DNA of 64,000 nucleotides, from contig JBBPFI010000010.1 of NCBI GenBank assembly GCA_037974965.1, positions 1,054,001-1,118,000 on the forward strand. Direction: 5' to 3'. The stretch is from Dacryopinax spathularia. Its lineage: Eukaryota > Basidiomycota > Dacrymycetes > Dacrymycetales > Dacrymycetaceae. The position numbers and the translations under genes are program-made. The notes under the pieces are model-generated. The model did not search any database. It saw nothing but the letters and a program-made list of their open reading frames with translations, and was not told the DNA's origin. Shown in pieces: positions 17,720-44,988 of the stretch. Position 1 is the stretch's first letter; the number at the start of each line of letters is the position of its first letter.

Positions 17720-20661
17720 TCAGATCCCAAGCGCCTCCATCAACCTCGGATCCACCGGGCTCCTAGGCGGCCCCCTCCCCGCCGAATCAGCAGAATACTG
17801 TCTTCCCAGCCCCGGTCTCTCCCGCTGAGCGCCGTTCTTCGCAGTCGGAGGACAAGTGGGACACCAGCCGGCTGAGGGCTGGGACCAGTCGGAGCCGCTG
17901 CTCGTACTCGCACTTGTGTGATGGCTGGTGGCGGTAAGGGCGCTCCCGAATGAGAGGTCTCGCGAATGACCCTGACCCGCTTCGGGAGGAGGGGCGCTGA
18001 ACCTCGCTTGTTCGGCATGAATGGACTTTCCCGGTCCTATAGTGGGGAGGGCAGGGCCAGCGGATTGTTGTCGGAGCAGCACCGGTCGAATCGCGTTCGA
18101 GGAAGATAGCGGCGAGCCTGACGCGGAGAGGGGGGATGGGAACTGTTTTTGCCCCGAAGCCGGTCTTGGTCGTGGACCAAATGAATGTCCAACGCTGCCA
18201 TGTGGGCCGTACTGCGCGCTTGGGCTCGTCTGAGCTGCAGAGGAGTTGGATAGTGAGCCCTGACGCATCCCGGCGCCTAGGACGGAAAGAGGCGTCACCC
18301 CTCCCCTCAGGTTCTGCAAGCTACTGGGCGCATCGGCATCGAGAGCTGCGGGAGGAAGGGTGAAGTTTATAAGGGGCGAGTCGGGTCGTGCGGGTAAGGG
18401 ATGCGGGGGTGGGTCCGAGTTGCGCTCAGGGGCTGGTTTTTGGCGGAGAGAGCGGGTGCGGACTGGCGCTTGCTGGGAAGAAGGCAGCAGGGGCATGGGA
18501 GGTGCGGTGGAAGTCGTTGATCGGGGTGTGAGGGTGAGCGCCCTGACAGTCTCGGCCGGCGAAGGAGTGTTCGTCCCTCCTGTGGTAGGTGTCGTAGGCT
18601 GCATACACCGAAATATGTCAGAAACGATGCATATATGCGCATATATGAGCGAAGGAAGGACGCACGAAATGCTCGATCAGGTCCACCGCGGCTCTCCAAT
18701 CCCTCAGACTCTCCTCGGTGTTCCCGCTGCTCTCTCCTCCACTTCCACTCCCACTCCCACTTCCGCTTCCTGCATCCTCGCCCTTGCTACTTCCTCTACC
18801 AGTGCCTCCCCGCCCTCTTGCTCCGGGTGCACCGCGGGAAGCACCTCGTCCTCCAGGAGAGCTCGATCCAGCAGTGGCACCTTCCTCCCAACCCGTCCTG
18901 ACCCTCCCTGGCCCGCTCGCGCCCGTCCGGGTCAGAGGATACCCCCTACTAACCCTACTCGCCGCACTCAACCCACTCACCGCACTGGCATGGGTAACAG
19001 CCGTCAGAGTTGGGCTCGGGCCTGGATCTCCCCTTAGCCTGGGGGAGTGTGCGGTCGTACGGCTCATCGGGAACCCAGCTGCTAGCCCTAACCCTCTGGG
19101 TGAAGCAGTCACCTGCTGGGCGCTGCCGGTACCGGTGCCGCTCGGTAGGCGTCTTGAGTACACAGACTCCGCATCCTCCGCATCCTCCCCTTCTTCTCCG
19201 TCCTCGTCATCCTCCGTACTCCCGCTCGAGAAGCTCTCCGACCCCGTAGAAAAAGAGAGCATGCTCGCGCTCGCACTAGCCAGCCCTCCACTCCCGCTCT
19301 CGCTCCCTCCACTGATTGCACTCCGACCATCATTGATCGACGCATCGGTGATGGTCTCAAATGAACCTTGACTCCAGCGTCTACCCCGGCTCCGGGTCGT
19401 GAATGTCGAGATTGTTGTTGTGGACGGAGTTGGAGAAGGAGAGCGGAGGTACGGAAGGTTTGAAGTGGGCGATACTCTCGGCCCGCCTGGTGGAGCTTGG
19501 CCGGGATAAGCCTGTGCGGGCGGGCCGTATTGTGTATGAGGGGCTGCAGGTACAGGCCAAGTCTGTTGGCCGTATGGAGAGCGGGAGGTGTTAGGTCGTT
19601 GTTGTTGCTGTTGTTGTTGCTGAGACCAAGGATGAGCCGCACTAGCCGACCATTGTGGATCCAGCGGTTGCTGCTGTAATGCCGAGTAAGGCCTGAACGA
19701 CTCGCCCGGCTTTTCTGCCTGTACTTGTACCTGCTGGGGTGCGTATGCAGAGTAGGGCGTATATGCCGCAGACGGTGATGGGCGGATGACAGGACTCCCC
19801 GAGCTGGAGGGCGCGCTGCTCCCGTTCGTCAAGCTAGGTGTATGCACAAAGCTTTGTGGAGAAGACAGTTGCGTAGGGCTTGCGCTGAGGTAAGTGTGGA
19901 CGATCGGGCTGGGCGGTGGATGGATTTGCGCGACGGGGCCGGTGGGCGTGGTAGGAGAACCGGAAGATTGGGATTGGGATGCCTGCCTCTCCCGTTCTTC
20001 GGCTGCGAGTACTCTGCGCGAGGGTGGGAGCACCTTGGATCGCGGGAGTCCGGTCTCGGCCCGAGCAGCGTGGAACGCTTCGTGCAAGCTTGCATCGAAC
20101 GTGTATTTCCTCTGTACGCAACAGCATCAGTAAGCTTCTGTGTGGGTGAGAGCGAGAAAGCAAGGGACGCACCTCCATCCCCTCGACCTTTGCGATAATA
20201 TCCGCCTCCGCCCTCCCCTTCTTCTGCTTCGACTCGATCCACAGCTTGATCGCCCTGCTCGCCAACCCGACGTTCCCACCACAATTCGCAAGCACCGTTG
20301 TCACTTCCAGCTGAGTGTCCATCCGGAACGCAGCTCCGGGAAGGTCGCGGAAGGTCGACATGTTGGGCCTGGCGAGGGGGAGGGGGAAGGAGTAGATCGG
20401 ATAGGCGTGGGGCTCGTATTGCTGAGGCTCTTTGTGTCGTTTCTGTTGTTGTTGTTGTGAATGGCGATGATGATGATTGTACTGAGAATTAAGATTGGGG
20501 TTGACGAGCTGTGCGGGCACTACTGGCCGCTGCGCTGGGTATTGCTGTGCTGATTGCTGACGTCTATGATGAAGCTGGAGCGCTGCTGCAGGTGTAGCTG
20601 GTATGAATGCAGGCTGAGGTTGATGTTGATGTTGAGGCTGCGAGTGAGGGAGTCCATGCAT
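17720..20661 (-). CDS. KQKKG-domain family protein A, large low-complexity protein
   Basis: Unrecognised family, named here after its conserved KQKKG run. Exons 20173-20661, 18666-20111, 17720-18598; 937 residues, all phase 0. A Gln/His/Pro-rich leader precedes a compact domain (about residues 115-195): DTQLEVTTVLANCGG, IESKQKKGRAEADIIAKVE, then across the first intron RKYTFDASLHEAFHAARAET. The rest is Ser/Pro/Gly-rich and likely disordered, with poly-Gln (CAA/CAG near 19600-19640) and an acidic patch (EDDEDGEEGEDAEDAE). A conserved-looking island ESLRDWRAAVDLIEHF ends exon 2. The gene at 27239 has the same domain with an intron at the same codon. Composition would suit a scaffold or regulator, but no function is claimed. 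The second intron carries a doubled TATATGCGC palindrome. The ATG at 20661 is the first in frame. Confidence 0.7.
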
Positions 20662-24665: not shown

Positions 24666-26138
24666 ATGCCAGAAAACGATCTCCGACTCATCGCCCTGCG
24701 CAATCAATTCCGAACGCTGGGCGATGACCCCGATAAGACGAAGGAAGCTATCGTCGGATATATCAACCTACATCGCCAAGCAGGGAGGAGGGATGCGGAT
24801 ATCCTAGCAGACCTGGATCTCCTACAAGTGCGCGGGATATGATCCTCATCAATGTTAGCAAATAGACTAACATGGACCCAGCTCCTCTATGGGTCGGATG
24901 AGCGGATGCTGCAGGCTTTCTCAACCGCCTGCGAGGTTACAGGGCTGAAGCGACCAGGCGAGCGATGGACATCGGAATTGAAGAAACTGCCTCAACCTCT
25001 CGGCTCCGTTTCTGCTGCGGACACACGATCGACTTCGGAGAAAACCCATCTACAGGCTGTGGCGCATCGAGCGGCTTCTATCTCGAGCGAAGCGTCAAGC
25101 GTGTCTGACTCTGCGGGCACGATTCTCCTCGACGCGGGTTCTCTACGACGGACTCTCCCATATGCCGAAAATCGACGTATGTCCCTGTCGAGCGAGGTCT
25201 CTTCAGAGTCTTCCGCAACCGTTATTCTCGATGGGGGTTCAATACGCTCTTCGCCAGCCATGACGCTAGCGTCGGCTGCGAGTCCGCCTCCCCCGATCAG
25301 ATATCATCCGGCCGTCGCGGCTCTTCGAGAGAGGGAAGGCTCTACTTCGACCCGTGCAGACACGCTCACTTCTTTGGGGACGGTCTATCTCTCCCCTCGA
25401 TCCATCTCTGCAGCTGATTCCACTCCGCCCAGAGGTGATCCTTACATTCTTGGTTCGTTACCCAGTGTGGCAGGGACTTCCAAACCCCATCTCGATGCTG
25501 ATGGGCTTCTGCTTGAAGGTGTCGAGGTTCGTGCCAATGGCGAATCATTCGACCAACCATTCGAAGCTCACGCGGCCGACGAGTCTCCAGACGAGCTCTC
25601 CGAACACGTTGGAACCCCGTCGCCCTTCCGTCCGTACGCTGGCCTTCGGCAGCCTCCGCCGCCTCCTATCCCACCAGTACACGACGCACGACCAGCCTCA
25701 CCCGACCGACTCGCCTCGCTCGGACGCAAGATGTCAAATCTCTTCGCGCCTCAAGTCTCTCTCCCCGCCCTTCCGCAGACCTCCCTAGGATCAAAGTCGA
25801 CAGCTGCTCGCATCAGCACGGCCTGGAAAGCGCGTCAGCCGAGCTCAGCCTCGGAGACTGTCGCTCAGGTCTCGCAGGACGGCTTCCTGCATCCTTCTTC
25901 GCTCAGGAACCTGTTCGCGAAAGAGCCTCCCGGGCCCGGTATCCCTACAGTGACGCCAGCACAAGCATCCCTGCCTCTGTATCCACTGCAGGTCGCGCAG
26001 GGGATGACGACTGCCCCAGGACCGCCAACGGTTCCGTTCCCGAATAACTTGCAGGTCCCAGTGCAGTTCGCACGGCAGAGCCAGCCGTCTCTGAATACTA
26101 TCTTCGAGGACGGAGGCTCACTGTCCCATCCTCGGTAG
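24666..26138 (+). CDS. KQKKG-domain family protein B (divergent) with repeated GT[IV]....GS[IL] motif
   Basis: Unrecognised. Exons 24666-24827 and 24882-26138; 472 residues. The first 54 codons (LRLIALRNQFRTLG, EAIVGYINLHRQAGRRDADI) and the start of exon 2 (LLYGSDERMLQAFSTACEV, then TGLKRPGE) follow the same pattern as family genes A and C, including the phase-0 intron at the matching position, though identity is low. The remainder is Ser/Pro-rich with four copies of a short motif: AGTILLDAGSL, SATVILDGGSI, LGTVYLSPRSI and, at the extreme C-terminus, LNTIFEDGGSL. The orphan at 15746 carries the same motif. The ATG at 24666 is the only one giving the N-terminal domain. The function is unknown. 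Confidence 0.7.
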
Positions 26139-27238: not shown

Positions 27239-28700
27239 ATGTTCCGTGGGGACACGCAGCTTGAGGTCATCTCCGTCCTAGCGACATGCGGCGCCGACCA
27301 AGCCCAAGCGACGAACGCACTGATCAGGTACATCGAGGCAAAGCAGAAGAAGGGGAAGAGTGCACAGCAGATCATTGCTAAGATGGAGGATCTCGAGGTG
27401 CGCCCTTACTACATCACCTCGTGGACGTGAATGAGAACTGATGTGATCGGAGCAGAGGAGGTACAAGTTCGACTCGAGCTTGTATGAGGCGTTTCATACT
27501 GCGAGGAGGAAGACGGGGTTGAGGAGGAGTAATGTTATCCCCCCCATTCGGCGTGTGAGGAGGGACTCGAACGGTGTCGAGCGGTACGAAGCAGTGGAGT
27601 ACAGTCCAGAGCGGGACGAGGCCGTTGAGCGTCCGGCACCTGTCCCATCTGAGGTCCAACCGCTCGCAGGACCATCAAAACCTCAGCCTTGCGACTGTCG
27701 GCCGTATCCTCGTCGCGGGACGGGCTCATCGCGAGAATCGACCACCACGCCCGTCGTACCGCCTGACATCCAGGTCGAAACCCCTCGCCCATTCCACCCT
27801 CAAGCCAGCCCACCGCAGCTATCCGCACGTAGGGGCACAACCTCGTCCCGCGACTCAACACTCCCACTCCCTCCCTCTCCACCCCAACCCAGTAGCTCCC
27901 GACCCTCTTCCTCATCGGCAGCTCGACCCAGCTCAACACGTACCCGCTCCGAACTCGACACACCAAGGAGCTTCATGCCCACCCCAGCCCTAACGGACAC
28001 CTCCAGCCCACCTCAGTCCATCCTCCTCGCTACGCCCAGCTTCGTGGGACACGACCCCAGCCCTCAACAGACCGACAGGGGAGAAAGGAAGTGGCACAAC
28101 TGGACAGCCCTTGGTCAATCGCCCAACCTTCCCGCTTCATCCTCCGGGTATGCGCAATCTCCCCCTCCCACCACTACCGCCGGCGCCGGGCCAGCATCCT
28201 CGAAATCCCGCCGCCGTTCCAGTAATATGTCAAACCTCGCCCTCCCACCCTCTTTCCTAGCCGACTCCGACCCCGCAAGGCTGGGGCAGGTAGTACCGGC
28301 GACGCCTAGGTCATTAATGGGCCTGACACACGAGCGGGGGCCGCTGAACGGCCGTTCAGGCCTGGAGAGCTGGACACCTCCTGCGCCTATGCCTGTGCCT
28401 GTGCCTGGGCCCGGCGGGTCTGGGGCGCGTGTGAGACCTCTGCCGGTGCCACCGCAGAAGAAGGGGAATGCCCCTTCCTTAGCCCCACTTACGCCGATCT
28501 CATCTGCATCGATGGGCGAGGATGAGCATGGGCATGCAGCGGAATTGAGTAAAGGGAGCAGTTTGTCCGCGCCGCCGGTTATGCTTCAGGGGCCTGGGCG
28601 GGGGAGGAGTGGGACGCTCGATGCTGGCGTTGGGGGGTATCAGGCGAGTGTGCAGGAGGAGGAAGGCATGAGGAGACATGCGGCTCGGAGGTCGATGTAG
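27239..28700 (+). CDS. KQKKG-domain family protein C
   Basis: Unrecognised family, close paralogue of gene A in its first 90 residues. Exons 27239-27397 and 27456-28700; 467 residues. It begins almost directly with the domain (DTQLEVISVLATCG, IEAKQKKGKSAQQIIAKME), then after the phase-0 intron RRYKFDSSLYEAFHTARRKT, GLRRSNVIPP, RRVRRD. The remaining 370 residues are Pro/Ser/Thr-rich and probably disordered. The ATG at 27239 is the first in frame. It lacks the long Gln/His leader of A and the repeats of B. Confidence 0.72.
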
Positions 28701-31335: not shown

Positions 31336-32981
31336 TCAATGTCCCCCACCCCTACCACCGCCAGTCCCGTTCCCGTGTCCCCCAGCACCGGCATTCCCGT
31401 TCCCACCCGCGCTCGAATGCATACTCCCCGCATGCGCCCCCGGGAACTCATCCCCCGAATGGTCTTTCTGCGCAAACACCCTCTCCACCTCCTCCTTCTC
31501 CGCTTCGTCTTTGTACCCCATGATCTTCGCCCGAAGCTCGTCGTTCGGGCTGAGGGAGGCCATCCGGCGGACGGCCATGATCGAGTGGATCGCTTTACGG
31601 ACTACAAACGCAGGAATATCAATATTCCGCTCAACTCAACTCTTTCGTAGCGTCGCTCCTTCGCCCCGGCGCCCCGGGCGCCAGCTAACGAGCCGCGCAA
31701 GCAGCCGAGGTCGAGAGTGCGGGTACTTACAGGTTTTGCGAGCATCAAAGTTCTGCCTCACGTGCGGCAGCAGATCAATAGGCGTCCCCACAGCACTAGC
31801 AGGATCAGGCACAAAGTGCTGTCTCCTATCCCTCAGCCACGGATGCTCAAGGCACTGCTTCGCCGTCGGCCGCTTATGCTGATCGATCGTCAGACAACAC
31901 CTTATAAAGTCCTTCGCGGTGCTCGACACGTTCAGCCAGTACTCGGCCGGCTCGAACTTATAGTCCCCCGCGCAGATCGCTTCCGCTTCTTCTTGCGGGT
32001 TGTCCCTGTCGAACGGGGTGTATCCGCCAAGGAGGAAATAGGTGATCACGCCCATAGCCCAGATGTCCACGGGCTTGCTGTGCCCGAGCTTGCGGAAGAT
32101 CTCGGGGGCCATGTAGCCCGGCGTGCCGCAGACTTCGGTAAGCTCGGTGAGCTTCTCGGGGTCCATTATTCGCGAGAGGCCAAAGTCGGCGATCATGATG
32201 TCCGCGTCTTCGGCGCGAGAGCGGAAGAGGAGGTTCTCGGGCTTGAGGTCTGCGCGCGCGCACGGGTCAGAACTACACTCCACCGTTGTTGGGGACGTTG
32301 TGCGCACCTCGGTGGACGATACCGCAGTCGTGGATGTAGTCGACGGCGGTCATGATAGTATACACGAGCGCGGACGCGTCCCTACCTCCCTGTCAGCATC
32401 ATTCCCCTCCATGGAATACGAGAGAGGACGCACGGCTCATAATAATACCCCTTCGCGCATATCCGATCAAACAGCTCCCCACCCGTACACAAGTCAAAAA
32501 CGAGGTACAGGTTATGCGCAGTCTACACCCGCAGCCACACTTGTCAGCGCTTGTTTGTATCGGACGCTGGAGGTAGAAGGACAGACCTCGAAATAGTCGT
32601 GCAGGGTGACGATGTTCTTATGCCCTCTCGAGACTTTCTTGAGGACGGCTATCTCGTTTCGTACCTGCGCGTCGCTGCGGTATCAGCGCTCTGCAGGACG
32701 ACGGGAAAGGGAGAGGAAGAGGGGCGCACCATATGTTCTCTCCCTTCCATGAGCTTCTTATTGATCACTTTGCACGCAAAGTATTCCCCGGTCTTGATAT
32801 GGACCGCCTCTACCGTACGACATACAACGGTGAGCCAGGTTGCTCGTAAGAGGGTGACTGGGTGGAGACGGACCTTTGACGATTGCGTATGTGCCTGAAC
32901 CGAGTGTCTTGCCTGTTCGGTACTGTCGCCCAAACCATCAGCGATATCGCCCGTTCGCCGTACTCTGGACGTACCTGGCAT
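31336..32981 (-). CDS. CMK1: Calcium/calmodulin-dependent protein kinase, CaMKI type
   Basis: Ser/Thr kinase. Eight exons: 32975-32981, 32874-32912, 32730-32809, 32587-32664, 32434-32522, 32308-32381, 31731-32249, 31336-31601; 383 residues, all phases closing. Glycine loop GSGTYAIVK, catalytic Lys in FACKVI, HRDLKPEN, DFG in IADFGLSRI, activation-loop Thr in CGTPGYMAPE, and WAMGVITYFLLGGYTPF of the CaMK group. After the kinase core, a basic helix (FRKAIHSIMAVRRMASL) is the expected autoinhibitory and calmodulin-binding segment. The tail is Gly-rich. The first coding exon is only 7 nt. The symbol is by family likeness; fungi have several CMK paralogues. Confidence 0.92.
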
Positions 32982-33885: not shown

Positions 33886-35864
33886 ATGCCAGGTATGGTG
33901 GAATATAGGAATCCTATCAGTGCGTCCTCTTTCCCCAATCCGATCGGCTGATGCCAATGGAATACGGTTACAGTCCCGGGGTTCAACCCCAACCCTTCTT
34001 GTGTACTGGTGGACGGGACATACTATCTCGTGACGGCTTCATACCTGTACTGGCCTGGGATCCCGGTTTACACCTCTCGGGATCTTGTGAATTGGACGCA
34101 TGTTGGTATGTTCTCTCCTCATCCTTCTGTCGCCGTAATTGTTTTTGTGGAAAATACTAACCGAGTGTAGGAACTGTATGCACCAGAGCGTCGCAAGTTG
34201 ACTTGACGCCTTGCGTGTCCCGGGTTGGAGCTTCTCAGAGCGGACTCTCTGCAGCGACGATCCGGTACAAAGACGGGACGTTCTACGTCTTAGCGACACT
34301 GGCATATAGCGACCGTATTCTAAAATATAGGAACGTACGTAGCGTCTCTTCTTTTCTTTGCTCTCTTCTTGCTTGGTGTTGGGTGTGGTTTGGAGACTGA
34401 TGATAGATGCAGCTGCTGTTCACTTGTCATGATCCGGTGAAGGAGGAATGGAGCGACCCCATCGTCCTTGATTTCACAGGGTCGGCTGTTTCTTTGTTTA
34501 TTGACGACGATAGGCGGGCTTACGTGCAGGGCGTGGTCTCAGCAAGGGTATGACAAATCAACCTCCTGCGGGTGTGGGAACAGTGCTCATTTGCTGTCTG
34601 TAGGGACGGACAGAGATTCAGCAGCTTGAGATGGATCTGAAAACGGGGCAGTCGTTGAGTGGAGCTCCCAAGTCAATGTAAGCGAGTGCAGCTTGCACGA
34701 CCCAGCCTACTCGCCGCTGACAACGGAATTTACAGATGGAAGGATGAATCAGGACAAACGCTTCATGGACCTCGCTCGTACAAGAAGGACGAGTTTTATT
34801 ACCTCCTCTTCTCGGAAGGTGATCCTGGCTGTTGTATAGCTCCAGGATGTCACTGACCTAAGCGAACAGGAAACGGCACGTCGGACCAGACGTTCATCAT
34901 AGCCCGCTCCCGATCAGTTTCAGGACCCTTCGAGCGCTCTCCCGATAGTTTGCTCGCTTCCTCGCCTACTGGAGATCTTCAACCTGCCGGGCATATGGAC
35001 CTCGTCCGTTCGCCGCAAGGACAATGGTTTGCAGTTTGCTCTGCTATCCGAAATGGAGGGGAAGAGCCTTCATCCTTAGGAGCAGAAGTCTGCCTCGTCC
35101 CGCTCGAATGGGACAGCGACGGCTGGCCGAAAGTTACAACCAAAGAGGGAGGAATCCCAACCCGAGCAACCGCCCCGCTCCCCTCCCCCACCCCTGCAGA
35201 AGAACAACCCTCGCCAAAACCCATCGACATCCTAGCCCTCTGCACCGATTCCTTCCCCTTATCGCTCCCTCTCGGCCTCGTAACACTCCGCAACCCCCCC
35301 TCGCCCCTGCCCTACCGCCTCCTCCCCTCTTCCCACCACCTAGCCCTCATCTCGTCCTATACCGCCCTCCCCTCAGCCGACGACTCACCCCGGATGATCC
35401 TCCGCCGCCTCACATCCCCCCGCAGCACCTGGAGGTTCACCCTCGGATTCCAGCAACCCGCCGGGCCAGCGTACGACGTCGGCCCCGTGTTCGAAGCTGG
35501 GATCGTGCTGTATAAAGACCATGCGCACCACTTTGATTTTGCGGTCAGCCGCAACCTTGTATGGACTGGTCAGTCTCGTGTGCGCACGTTGGGGGACGGG
35601 CCGGCTAGGGTGAGCGGGCAGAGGACGGTGGATATGCCCGCTAGGTTGAGGATCGAGACGTTCCAGGAGGGGAGGTACGAGTTCTGGGCGATGTGTAAGG
35701 ATGAGTGGGTTTTGATACATGCGGACGAGGAGGGCAAGGCTGTGAGCGGTGGGATGGCGGGGGTGATGATTGGGCCGTATATCATGTCGCAGCTGCCGGT
35801 GGCGATGTATGTCCAGGAATGGACGGTTGAGGATCTACAGGAGGATGCGCCGAGCGATGCTTAG
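33886..35864 (+). CDS. GH43-fold protein, probably catalytically inactive
   Basis: Intracellular member of the glycoside hydrolase 43 five-bladed propeller family (beta-xylosidase/arabinofuranosidase type); no signal peptide. Seven exons: 33886-33919, 33974-34105, 34171-34334, 34413-34547, 34604-34677, 34736-34818, 34870-35864; 538 residues, phases closing. Fold landmarks are clear: NPIIPGF, TYYLVTAS, PGIPVYTSRDLVNW, TIRYKDGTFYV, SLFIDDDRRAY, YKKDEFYYLLFSEG, and a C-terminal beta-sandwich-like half. The catalytic positions are altered: the usual Asp of PDPS is Asn (FNPNPS), the Asp of DPSLF is replaced (GSAVSLF), and the Glu of EGP is His (LHGPRSY). The gene is otherwise intact, so a pseudoenzyme is inferred. 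Fold assignment is sure; lack of activity is not tested. Confidence 0.88.
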
Positions 35865-43164: not shown

Positions 43165-44988
43165 ATGTCTCTCACACCTATGACAACTATCGAAGGCCCC
43201 ACCGCGGGCCAAGTCACTCCGCCCGCTTTCCTCGGCTCCCTCTCCCGCCGGACTAGCATCTCCCTCTCCCTCCCCGCCTCCCGCCGCGGTTCCGGCACAG
43301 TACCCACCCTAACAGGGAAAGACCTGCCCTTCCATCACCGAACGAACGATGCTGAGGAACTGCCGCACGCGACGAAGAAGACGATGGCGGACCATCTTCG
43401 GAAGTACGAGTCTTTGTTCACGCTCACACCGCAGCGGATGCGGATGATCGTCGATGCGTTCAGTGAGACGCTGGAGAAAGGGTTACAAGAAGTCGGGCAG
43501 GTCGTCGTGCGTCCCTTGCTTTCTTTCCCTTAGTGAGAATGAAGCAGGGCTGACGCATACATCCAATAGCCAATGATCCCAACCTTCGTCTTCGGCTGGC
43601 CGAAAGGCACCGAGTCTGGGTCATACCTCGCGCTCGACCTAGGCGGCACGAATCTCCGCGTTTGCCTCGTCACCCTTGCTGGGGAAGGGAAGTTCGAGAT
43701 CACCCAGACCAAGTACCGCTTGACGGAAGAGCAGAAACAGGAGGAGGGAGAGCTGCTGTTTGATTTCTGCGCGCAGTGTTTGAAGACGTTTATTGATAGC
43801 TATCTGGCGGACTTTGATCTGCAGGGGGCGACGATCCCGCTTGGCTTCACGGTGAGTCTTCCACACTCCGAGCGGTGACGATGGGAGCTGATCAGATACC
43901 GTAGTTCTCCTACCCGTGCGAGCAAGAACGGATCGACCACGGCAAGCTGATCCGGTGGACAAAAGGTTTCGGCAACCCGAACGTAGAGGGGTTCGACGTC
44001 GCGGCCATGTTTCGCAAGTCGCTCGAGAAATACCAAGTCCCCATCGAACTCACCTCCCTCATAAACGACACGACCGGCACGCTCATCGCTTCGCACTACG
44101 TGAACCCACGGACGAAGATCGGCGTTATCTTCGGCACGGGGTGCAACGCGGCGTACATGGAGAAGATTGGGAATATTCCGAAGATCAAGCATCTCGGCTT
44201 GCCAGAGGACGGGGAGATGGCGATCAACTGCGAGTGGGGCGCGTTTGATAGTTTTACGCATGAGCATCTACCGAGGACAAAGTACGATATCGAGATTGAT
44301 CAGACGAGCAACAAGCCCGACGAGCAGTCGTTCGAGGTGTGTCATCCCTTCCCTATTCCACACTACCCATCCGAGCTGATCACGCCGCGCAGAAACTCAT
44401 CTCCGGCCGATACCTAGGCGAGATCTTCCGACTCGTCATCTGCGAAATGATCGACGACGGCTCGATCTTCCTCGGTCAAAACACCTACAAGCTCGAAAAG
44501 CCCTACGTGCTCGAGACGGCCTTCCTCTCCCTGATGGAAGCGGACCCGACAGACGAGCTCCTGACCGTAGTCGGCATCTTCTCTCACTTCTACGGGCTCG
44601 AGACCACTCTCGCAGAACGGCAGTTCTTCCGTGCCCTTGCCAAACTTATCGGTACCCGCGCGGCCCGGCTGTCCGCGTGCGGCATAGCAGCCATAGTGAG
44701 CAAGATGGGCTACCTCGAGGAGGGATGCGACGTCGCCGCGGACGGGAGTCTGTACTCCAAGTATCCCGGGTTCGCGGAGAGGGTGCATCAGGGCCTGGTG
44801 GATATCTTTGGGCCGAAGGGGAAGAATATTAGGACGGTGCATGCGGAGGATGGGAGTGGGGTCGGGAGCGCTATTATTGCTGGTGCGTCTTTCGCTTCCC
44901 ACTTTTCCCTCTAGTCTATGATGCTGACTTGGGCGGTATAGCGATGACGAACGAGCGCCGGGCGGCGGGGTTGTATCCGCACTGCTGA
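43165..44988 (+). CDS. Hexokinase
   Basis: Phosphorylates glucose and other hexoses with ATP, the first step of glycolysis. Exons 43165-43506, 43570-43851, 43905-44336, 44393-44882, 44942-44988; 530 residues, phases closing. Phosphate-1 loop LALDLGGTNLRV, sugar-binding FSYPCEQ...WTKGF and SLINDTTGTLIASHY with its catalytic Asp, IGVIFGTGCNAAY, and adenosine-side AEDGSGVGSAIIA. Length is slightly above the typical 485-500 because of a 60-residue Ser/Thr-rich N-terminal extension not matching other hexokinases. It is a hexokinase rather than a glucokinase by general likeness; the paralogue number cannot be fixed. Confidence 0.95.

What the first reader, a model, noticed from the sequence alone, without database searches (positions are those of the whole stretch)
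33886..35864. GH43-fold protein that has lost all three expected catalytic acids
Family knowledge: GH43 enzymes use an Asp base in the first blade (FNPDPS-type), a second Asp (GIDPSLF-type) and a Glu acid (EGPH-type). Here the three aligned motifs read FNPNPS, GSAVSLF and LHGPRSY, so Asp to Asn, Asp to Ala and Glu to His. The surrounding motifs, seven exons and all splice phases are intact, and no stop or frameshift is present. That pattern fits a conserved pseudoenzyme (sugar binding, regulation) rather than a decaying gene. It is also intracellular, with no signal peptide.
Basis: partly seen in the sequence, partly recalled or inferred. Interest (0 to 1): 0.78.

Follow-up and report, generated by a model that had tools for sequence, protein, structure and literature searches.

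The report
Dead sugar-cutting enzyme, still maintained
A jelly-fungus gene makes a protein shaped like a sugar-releasing enzyme, but its three catalytic residues are gone while the gene stays intact, so it probably does a non-enzymatic job that is still unknown.

Summary
A seven-exon gene (33886-35864 +, 538 aa) encodes a full GH43 propeller plus a GH43_C2 sandwich. The catalytic positions read Asn18, Ala135, His190 instead of Asp, Asp, Glu; of 350 homologues aligned with it 343 read DDE and none NAH. The host is not a yeast: an intact paralogue in the same genome is 82% identical to Calocera cornea and 78% to Dacryopinax, both Dacrymycetes.

The loss looks stepwise. The best hit, from Dacryopinax primogenitus (49%), has Asn at the base but keeps the second Asp and the Glu. 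The two form a fully supported, fast-evolving clade within a group of DDE proteins. They have lost 18 and 16 of 74 family-conserved residues, so the surrounding motifs are not all intact. Their catalytic domain has nearly lost its usual conservation lead over the C-terminal domain (1 of 1150 sampled control pairs as extreme).

Best reading: a probably cytosolic, catalytically dead GH43 kept for a non-catalytic role. Recent decay is not excluded: dN/dS, expression and activity could not be tested.

The parts
33886..35864 (+). gene of the GH43-fold protein, 7 exons (33886-33919, 33974-34105, 34171-34334, 34413-34547, 34604-34677, 34736-34818, 34870-35864), 538 aa
   Evidence: spliced model, all introns GT-AG, no internal stop
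33904..35129 (+). GH43 five-bladed propeller domain, residues 7-294 (interrupted by introns)
   Evidence: Pfam PF04616, 171.6 bits, profile 1-288 of 288
35265..35789 (+). GH43_C2 beta-sandwich domain, residues 340-514
   Evidence: Pfam PF17851, 30.4 bits, profile 9-186 of 203; 27-32% identical to the relatives compared, 51-58% to the Dacryopinax orthologue by alignment method
33991..33993 (+). codon of Asn18, in place of the catalytic base Asp
   Evidence: Asn shared with P0001 of Dacryopinax
34485..34487 (+). codon of Ala135, in place of the pKa-modulating Asp
   Evidence: P0001 keeps Asp
34764..34766 (+). codon of His190, in place of the catalytic acid Glu
   Evidence: P0001 keeps Glu

Best explanation
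This is a probably cytosolic GH43 pseudoenzyme of a jelly fungus (Dacrymycetes). It descends from an intracellular-type two-domain GH43 shared with Panus and Ceratobasidiaceae. The catalytic base was replaced by Asn, and several active-site loop residues were lost, most simply before the split from Dacryopinax. In the window lineage the pKa modulator (Ala), the general acid (His) and most of the sugar-stacking wall then went too.

Shown: the gene model, domains, substitutions, phylogeny and the changed balance of conservation between the domains. Inferred: that it has no glycosidase activity (no acid, no base), that it is cytosolic, and that it is kept for a binding role. The mechanism I commit to, with a probability of about 0.25, is a protein-level regulator: the preserved scaffold and the lineage-specific C-terminal sandwich bind a partner, most simply the DDE-type paralogue C3 as a mixed oligomer, or a pentose through what remains of the pocket (H238/R269 equivalents), and so modulate use of imported xylo- or arabino-oligosaccharides.
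Against: Fast evolution and loss of 18 of 74 conserved columns also fit relaxed constraint. The C-terminal domain matches Pfam only weakly (30.4 bits). Among the listed hits one other species carries the lineage; no Calocera orthologue is among the 120 listed of 241 and of 244. P0001 lost only 3 of the 8 pocket columns against 13 of 66 (p 0.36), so pocket-specific loss is seen in the query alone. The control pairs share sequences and are not independent, and P0340 and the five odd rows were left out of them. No partner, expression or binding evidence exists. The query itself was not folded. The ten neighbouring frames scanned give no functional link.
Confidence: 0.66

Rival explanations
1. A recently relaxed gene on its way to becoming a pseudogene: it served a (possibly already non-catalytic) function until recently, and the Asp to Ala and Glu to His changes fell in the last, unconstrained part of the branch.
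For: Fast branch (0.63), 18 of 74 conserved columns lost, loss of pocket residues, no listed homologue with the same Ala/His. Up to about 55 neutral missense changes are compatible with zero stops at the 5% level.
Against: All six introns, the start and the stop are intact. The whole branch is unlikely to be neutral (5.8 to 17.7 stops expected). The query's end branch is not longer than that of P0001, which keeps Asp and Glu (0.63 against 0.81). GC3 of 0.65 lies within the 0.50-0.77 of the long frames of the window, though that list is mechanical and includes frames that may not be genes.
Confidence: 0.22
2. Still a glycosidase or transglycosidase with a rewired mechanism: Asn18 acts as an imidic-acid base, as reported for Gln263 in Pc1,3Gal43A and Asn92 in PcCel45A, and His190 or another residue replaces the acid.
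For: Base-less GH43_sub24 enzymes are active (PMC7939473, passages read). Asn18 is shared with P0001, which keeps the acid and second Asp. H238 and R269 equivalents are kept.
Against: Pc1,3Gal43A uses a Glu as acid; here the acid position is His, and the pKa modulator and most of the sugar-stacking wall are gone. The propeller has nearly lost its usual conservation lead. It remains more plausible for P0001 than for the query.
Confidence: 0.07
3. A sequencing, assembly or gene-model artefact: the real protein has the normal triad.
For: One assembly only; the gene model is predicted, not backed by RNA.
Against: Three separate codons in exons 2, 4 and 6, none at a junction of the model. Asn18 is found independently in Dacryopinax, and ten more conserved columns are lost in both.
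Confidence: 0.02

Closest known systems
Two-domain GH43 beta-xylosidases / arabinofuranosidases (Geobacillus 5z5d, BoGH43A 5jow, Selenomonas 3c2u)
   Different: All three catalytic carboxylates and most of the subsite -1 wall are gone.
Dacryopinax primogenitus 'Arabinanase/levansucrase/invertase' (P0001)
   Same: Orthologue by tree, 49% identity, Asn at the base, starts directly at the propeller, same derived C-terminal domain.
   Different: Keeps the second Asp and the acid Glu (NDE).
GH43_sub24 exo-beta-1,3-galactanase Pc1,3Gal43A (PMC7939473, passages read)
   Same: GH43 fold without the catalytic base Asp.
   Different: Has the acid Glu and uses Gln263 as imidic-acid base; active.
Plant defective invertases such as tobacco Nin88 (PMC11821009, passages read)
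   Same: A glycoside-hydrolase paralogue that lost residues needed for catalysis and is suggested to act by competing for active invertases or their inhibitors. That these belong to GH32 with a similar propeller-sandwich plan is recalled.
   Different: Another family, a cell-wall protein; two named mutations rather than the whole triad.
Dead paralogues that activate their partners: T. brucei AdoMetDC prozyme (PMC5201418) and trypanosomatid DHS (PMC3663545); beetle GH28 pseudoenzymes (PMC6549527)
   Same: Catalytically dead copies kept beside an active paralogue, as C3 may be here. Seen: search listing with the start of the abstract for the first two, abstract and outline for the third.
   Different: Partnership or pathway role is shown there and only proposed here.

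Membership tests
GH43 (sequence and fold) | full-length match to the GH43 domain model | tested here: met
   PF04616 171.6 bits against cut-off 32.2, profile 1-288 of 288
GH43 (sequence and fold) | five-bladed propeller fold | tested here: inconclusive
   found for the model of the orthologue P0001; the query itself was not folded
GH43 catalytically competent enzyme | Asp base, Asp pKa modulator, Glu acid | tested here: not met
   Asn18, Ala135, His190
GH43 catalytically competent enzyme | hydrolytic activity | not testable with these tools
   needs an assay
Two-domain GH43 beta-xylosidase group | C-terminal GH43_C2 sandwich | tested here: met
   PF17851 30.4 bits over cut-off 22.7
GH43_sub24-type base-less enzymes | acid Glu present | tested here: not met
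   acid position is His
GH43_sub24-type base-less enzymes | Gln as imidic-acid base | not tested
   no sub24 sequence was aligned
Pseudoenzyme | homologous domain with essential catalytic residues missing | tested here: met
Pseudoenzyme | maintained by selection | tested here: inconclusive
   whole-branch neutrality unlikely but no dN/dS; a recent relaxed phase is possible
Pseudoenzyme | non-catalytic function shown | not testable with these tools
   no expression, partner or ligand data

The most novel reading that the evidence does not exclude
A jelly-fungus lineage of cytosolic GH43 proteins became a pseudoenzyme family step by step (base first, then modulator and acid), and selection moved from the catalytic propeller to a re-made C-terminal sandwich that now regulates or senses pentose metabolism. 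The Dacryopinax NDE protein is the living intermediate.
Probability: 0.35. Interest if true: 0.62.

Novelty: new variant of a known kind. Interest (0 to 1): 0.47.

Why it matters
Pseudoenzymes are known in many families, but my searches showed no described GH43 one, seen as listings only: (GH43 + pseudoenzyme) gave one paper, not read; one search listed 15 of 19 papers, of which one (PMC11022575) was opened, abstract and outline only; (Dacryopinax + GH43) gave six papers, not read. The library lacks most subscription journals. Two points make this case useful: a relative that has lost only the base, so the order of loss can be read and tested, and a simple sequence signature (the catalytic domain loses its conservation lead over its companion domain) that could flag other dead enzymes. 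A distant metagenomic GH43 with Asn at the base, P0340, turns up in four of the eight most extreme control pairs of that measure.

Tried and rejected
Recent duplicate of the cytosolic-type paralogue C3: rejected, since holding the query and P0001 together with the C3 clade costs 57 log-likelihood units, p-AU 8e-6. I named that group after seeing the quick tree, which the test does not allow for. The donor of the first intron falls at the same place and phase in both genes (both C3 models use that donor), which I read as an old shared intron.

Decay seen in codon use: GC3 of the query is 0.65, of C3 0.83, but the long frames of the window run from 0.50 to 0.77, so this says little.

Domain-constraint contrast: on the multiple alignment the query pair came out at +2.7 points, against a mean of -22.5 in 24,996 pairs, none as high. 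With plain pairwise alignment it is -3.8, so the size of the effect depends on the method. I repeated the control with the pairwise method and rely on that: 1 of 1150 as extreme. The sample was 1500 of 33,775 available pairs, of which 1150 passed the length and identity limits; P0340 and the five odd rows were left out, while one search kept P0340.

NCBIfam: no match for P0001 and only weak matches far under the cut-off for three relatives. A fold of P0001 without an alignment was useless (pLDDT 31). The neighbourhood shows no xylan or arabinan cluster among the ten frames scanned; a hexokinase exon about 8 kb downstream is the only sugar gene among them and is probably chance.

GH43 subfamily was not assigned: no subfamily library is on hand.

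Full report
What is there. Pfam finds a full GH43 domain (171.6 bits, residues 7-294) and a weak but over-threshold GH43_C2 domain (30.4 bits, 340-514). The closest solved structures by sequence are two-domain GH43 arabinofuranosidases and beta-xylosidases (5jow, 5z5d, 1yrz). The protein starts directly at the propeller, with an in-frame stop nine codons upstream. P0001, Panus P0131 and Rhizoctonia P0124 and the C3 paralogue start the same way, so a cytosolic protein is likely by inference; no signal-peptide program was run.

The triad. In one search, with 120 homologues, the base column is Asp in 119 and Asn in one; the second Asp is Asp in 120; the acid is Glu in 119 with one gap. Over 350 homologues read DDE; C3 does too. 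The query reads NAH. P0001 from Dacryopinax primogenitus and P0340, an unnamed metagenomic protein, read NDE. Five rows have a gap or odd residue in one motif, which I take for gene-model faults or isolated changes.

The organism and the control gene. The genome (29.2 Mb, 24 contigs) holds two more places that match both GH43 and GH43_C2, and further GH43 matches on contigs C18 and C2 that I did not analyse. The C3 gene has DDE intact; its protein is 82% identical to Calocera cornea and 78% to Dacryopinax, both in class Dacrymycetes. C4 has, by eye, a longer signal-peptide-like start and intact motifs, and groups with Calocera viscosa. So the window most likely comes from a Dacrymycete, and C3 gives a yardstick: it is 78% identical to Dacryopinax where the query is 49%.

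Phylogeny. In a 53-row tree the query and P0001 form a clade (SH-aLRT 100) with stem 1.0 and end branches 0.63 and 0.81; C3 and its two orthologues have end branches of 0.06 to 0.15. A careful 27-row tree with the query's triad masked gives 100/100 for the pair and 98/96 for the pair with Panus and five Ceratobasidiaceae proteins, all six of which read DDE. The simplest history is: a DDE enzyme; Asp to Asn at the base before the split of the two Dacrymycete lineages; then Asp to Ala and Glu to His in the window lineage. With two sequences, independent Asp to Asn changes are not strictly excluded.

The pocket. Contacts of subsite -1 in the Geobacillus enzyme 5z5d are listed in PMC5919610 (passages read): D14, D121, E177, H238, R269, F31, F73, A74, I120, T197; Y175 and F480 line +1. 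In the query these are N, A, H, H, R, Y, S, A, S, G, T, M; in P0001 they are N, D, E, H, R, L, C, A, Y, D, Y, Y. The numbering rests on the alignment as far as it goes; I120 sits beside a gap there and follows the MAFFT column, and H238, R269 and F480 were placed by motif. Of 74 family-conserved columns the query keeps 56, P0001 58, C3 70; the family mean is 71.4, minimum 62. Eleven losses, the base included, are at the same columns in both. Of the eight pocket columns among the 74, the query lost five, against 13 of the other 66 (p 0.018, uncorrected); P0001 lost three, against 13 of 66 (p 0.36).

Constraint. In the pairs compared, the propeller is normally much better conserved than the C-terminal domain: 87.7 against 70.6% for C3 and Dacryopinax, 63.2 against 34.6% for Panus and Rhizoctonia. 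For the query and P0001 the two are nearly equal: 54.8 and 57.5% on the multiple alignment, 54.4 and 50.6% pairwise. With one pairwise method throughout, the gap is -3.8 points for the query pair against a mean of -21.1 (sd 4.6) in 1150 pairs of similar divergence, one of them as extreme, and 0 of 273 fungal pairs; the control pairs share sequences and are not independent. I infer that the extra constraint which catalysis puts on the propeller is largely gone in this lineage. Since the measure spans both branches, it cannot say how much of the loss lies in each.

Decay or function. Given the query's codons, one nonsense change is expected for every 18 or so missense changes without selection. 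The query branch carries roughly 106 visible (my share of about 240 differences by branch length) to 325 estimated replacements, so 5.8 to 17.7 stops would be expected under neutrality throughout; none is seen (P 0.003 to 2e-8), before counting frameshifts and splice sites. A recent neutral phase of up to about 55 missense changes remains possible. The branch numbers come from the tree model and are rough. The Dacryopinax gene is known here only as a predicted protein.

Mechanism. The absence of both acid and base makes ordinary inverting hydrolysis very unlikely (established mechanism of GH43; inference for this protein). The Asn base alone would not settle it, since Pc1,3Gal43A uses an amide as base (PMC7939473, passages); the missing acid weighs more. 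I favour a regulatory or binding role with the DDE-type paralogue C3 as the simplest partner, by analogy with defective invertases (PMC11821009, passages) and dead paralogues in other families (PMC5201418, PMC3663545: search listing; PMC6549527: abstract and outline). This step is a proposal without direct evidence.

Verdict. A real GH43 pseudoenzyme candidate with a half-way relative; ordinary in kind (pseudoenzymes are known), unusual in this family as far as the 350 homologues and my paper searches show, and readily testable.

Noticed in passing
protein P0340 (metagenomic GH43): A distant GH43 with Asn at the catalytic base, Arg for A74 and Tyr for H238; keeps only 58 of 74 conserved columns and occurs in four of the eight most extreme control pairs of the domain-constraint measure. 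A second, independent pseudoenzyme candidate.
   Followed up: partly
window 18621-20126 (-), 27447-28697 (+), possibly 24843-26135 (+): Long frames sharing an N-terminal motif of about 35 residues (24 of 35 identical between the first two, E 1e-12; weak for the third, E 0.003); no Pfam match for 24843-26135 and 27447-28697 (the first was not scanned). Perhaps an uncharacterised local paralogue family.
   Followed up: partly
window 31639-32349 (-): Protein kinase exon beside the GH43 gene (Pkinase 127 bits).
   Followed up: no
window 43905-44414 (+): Hexokinase exon about 8 kb downstream, the only other sugar-metabolism gene among the ten frames scanned.
   Followed up: no
protein P0126 (Pluteus cervinus GH43): Acid motif reads LAKGPH in place of the usual EGPH, seemingly one residue short: a gene-model slip or another loss.
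   Followed up: no
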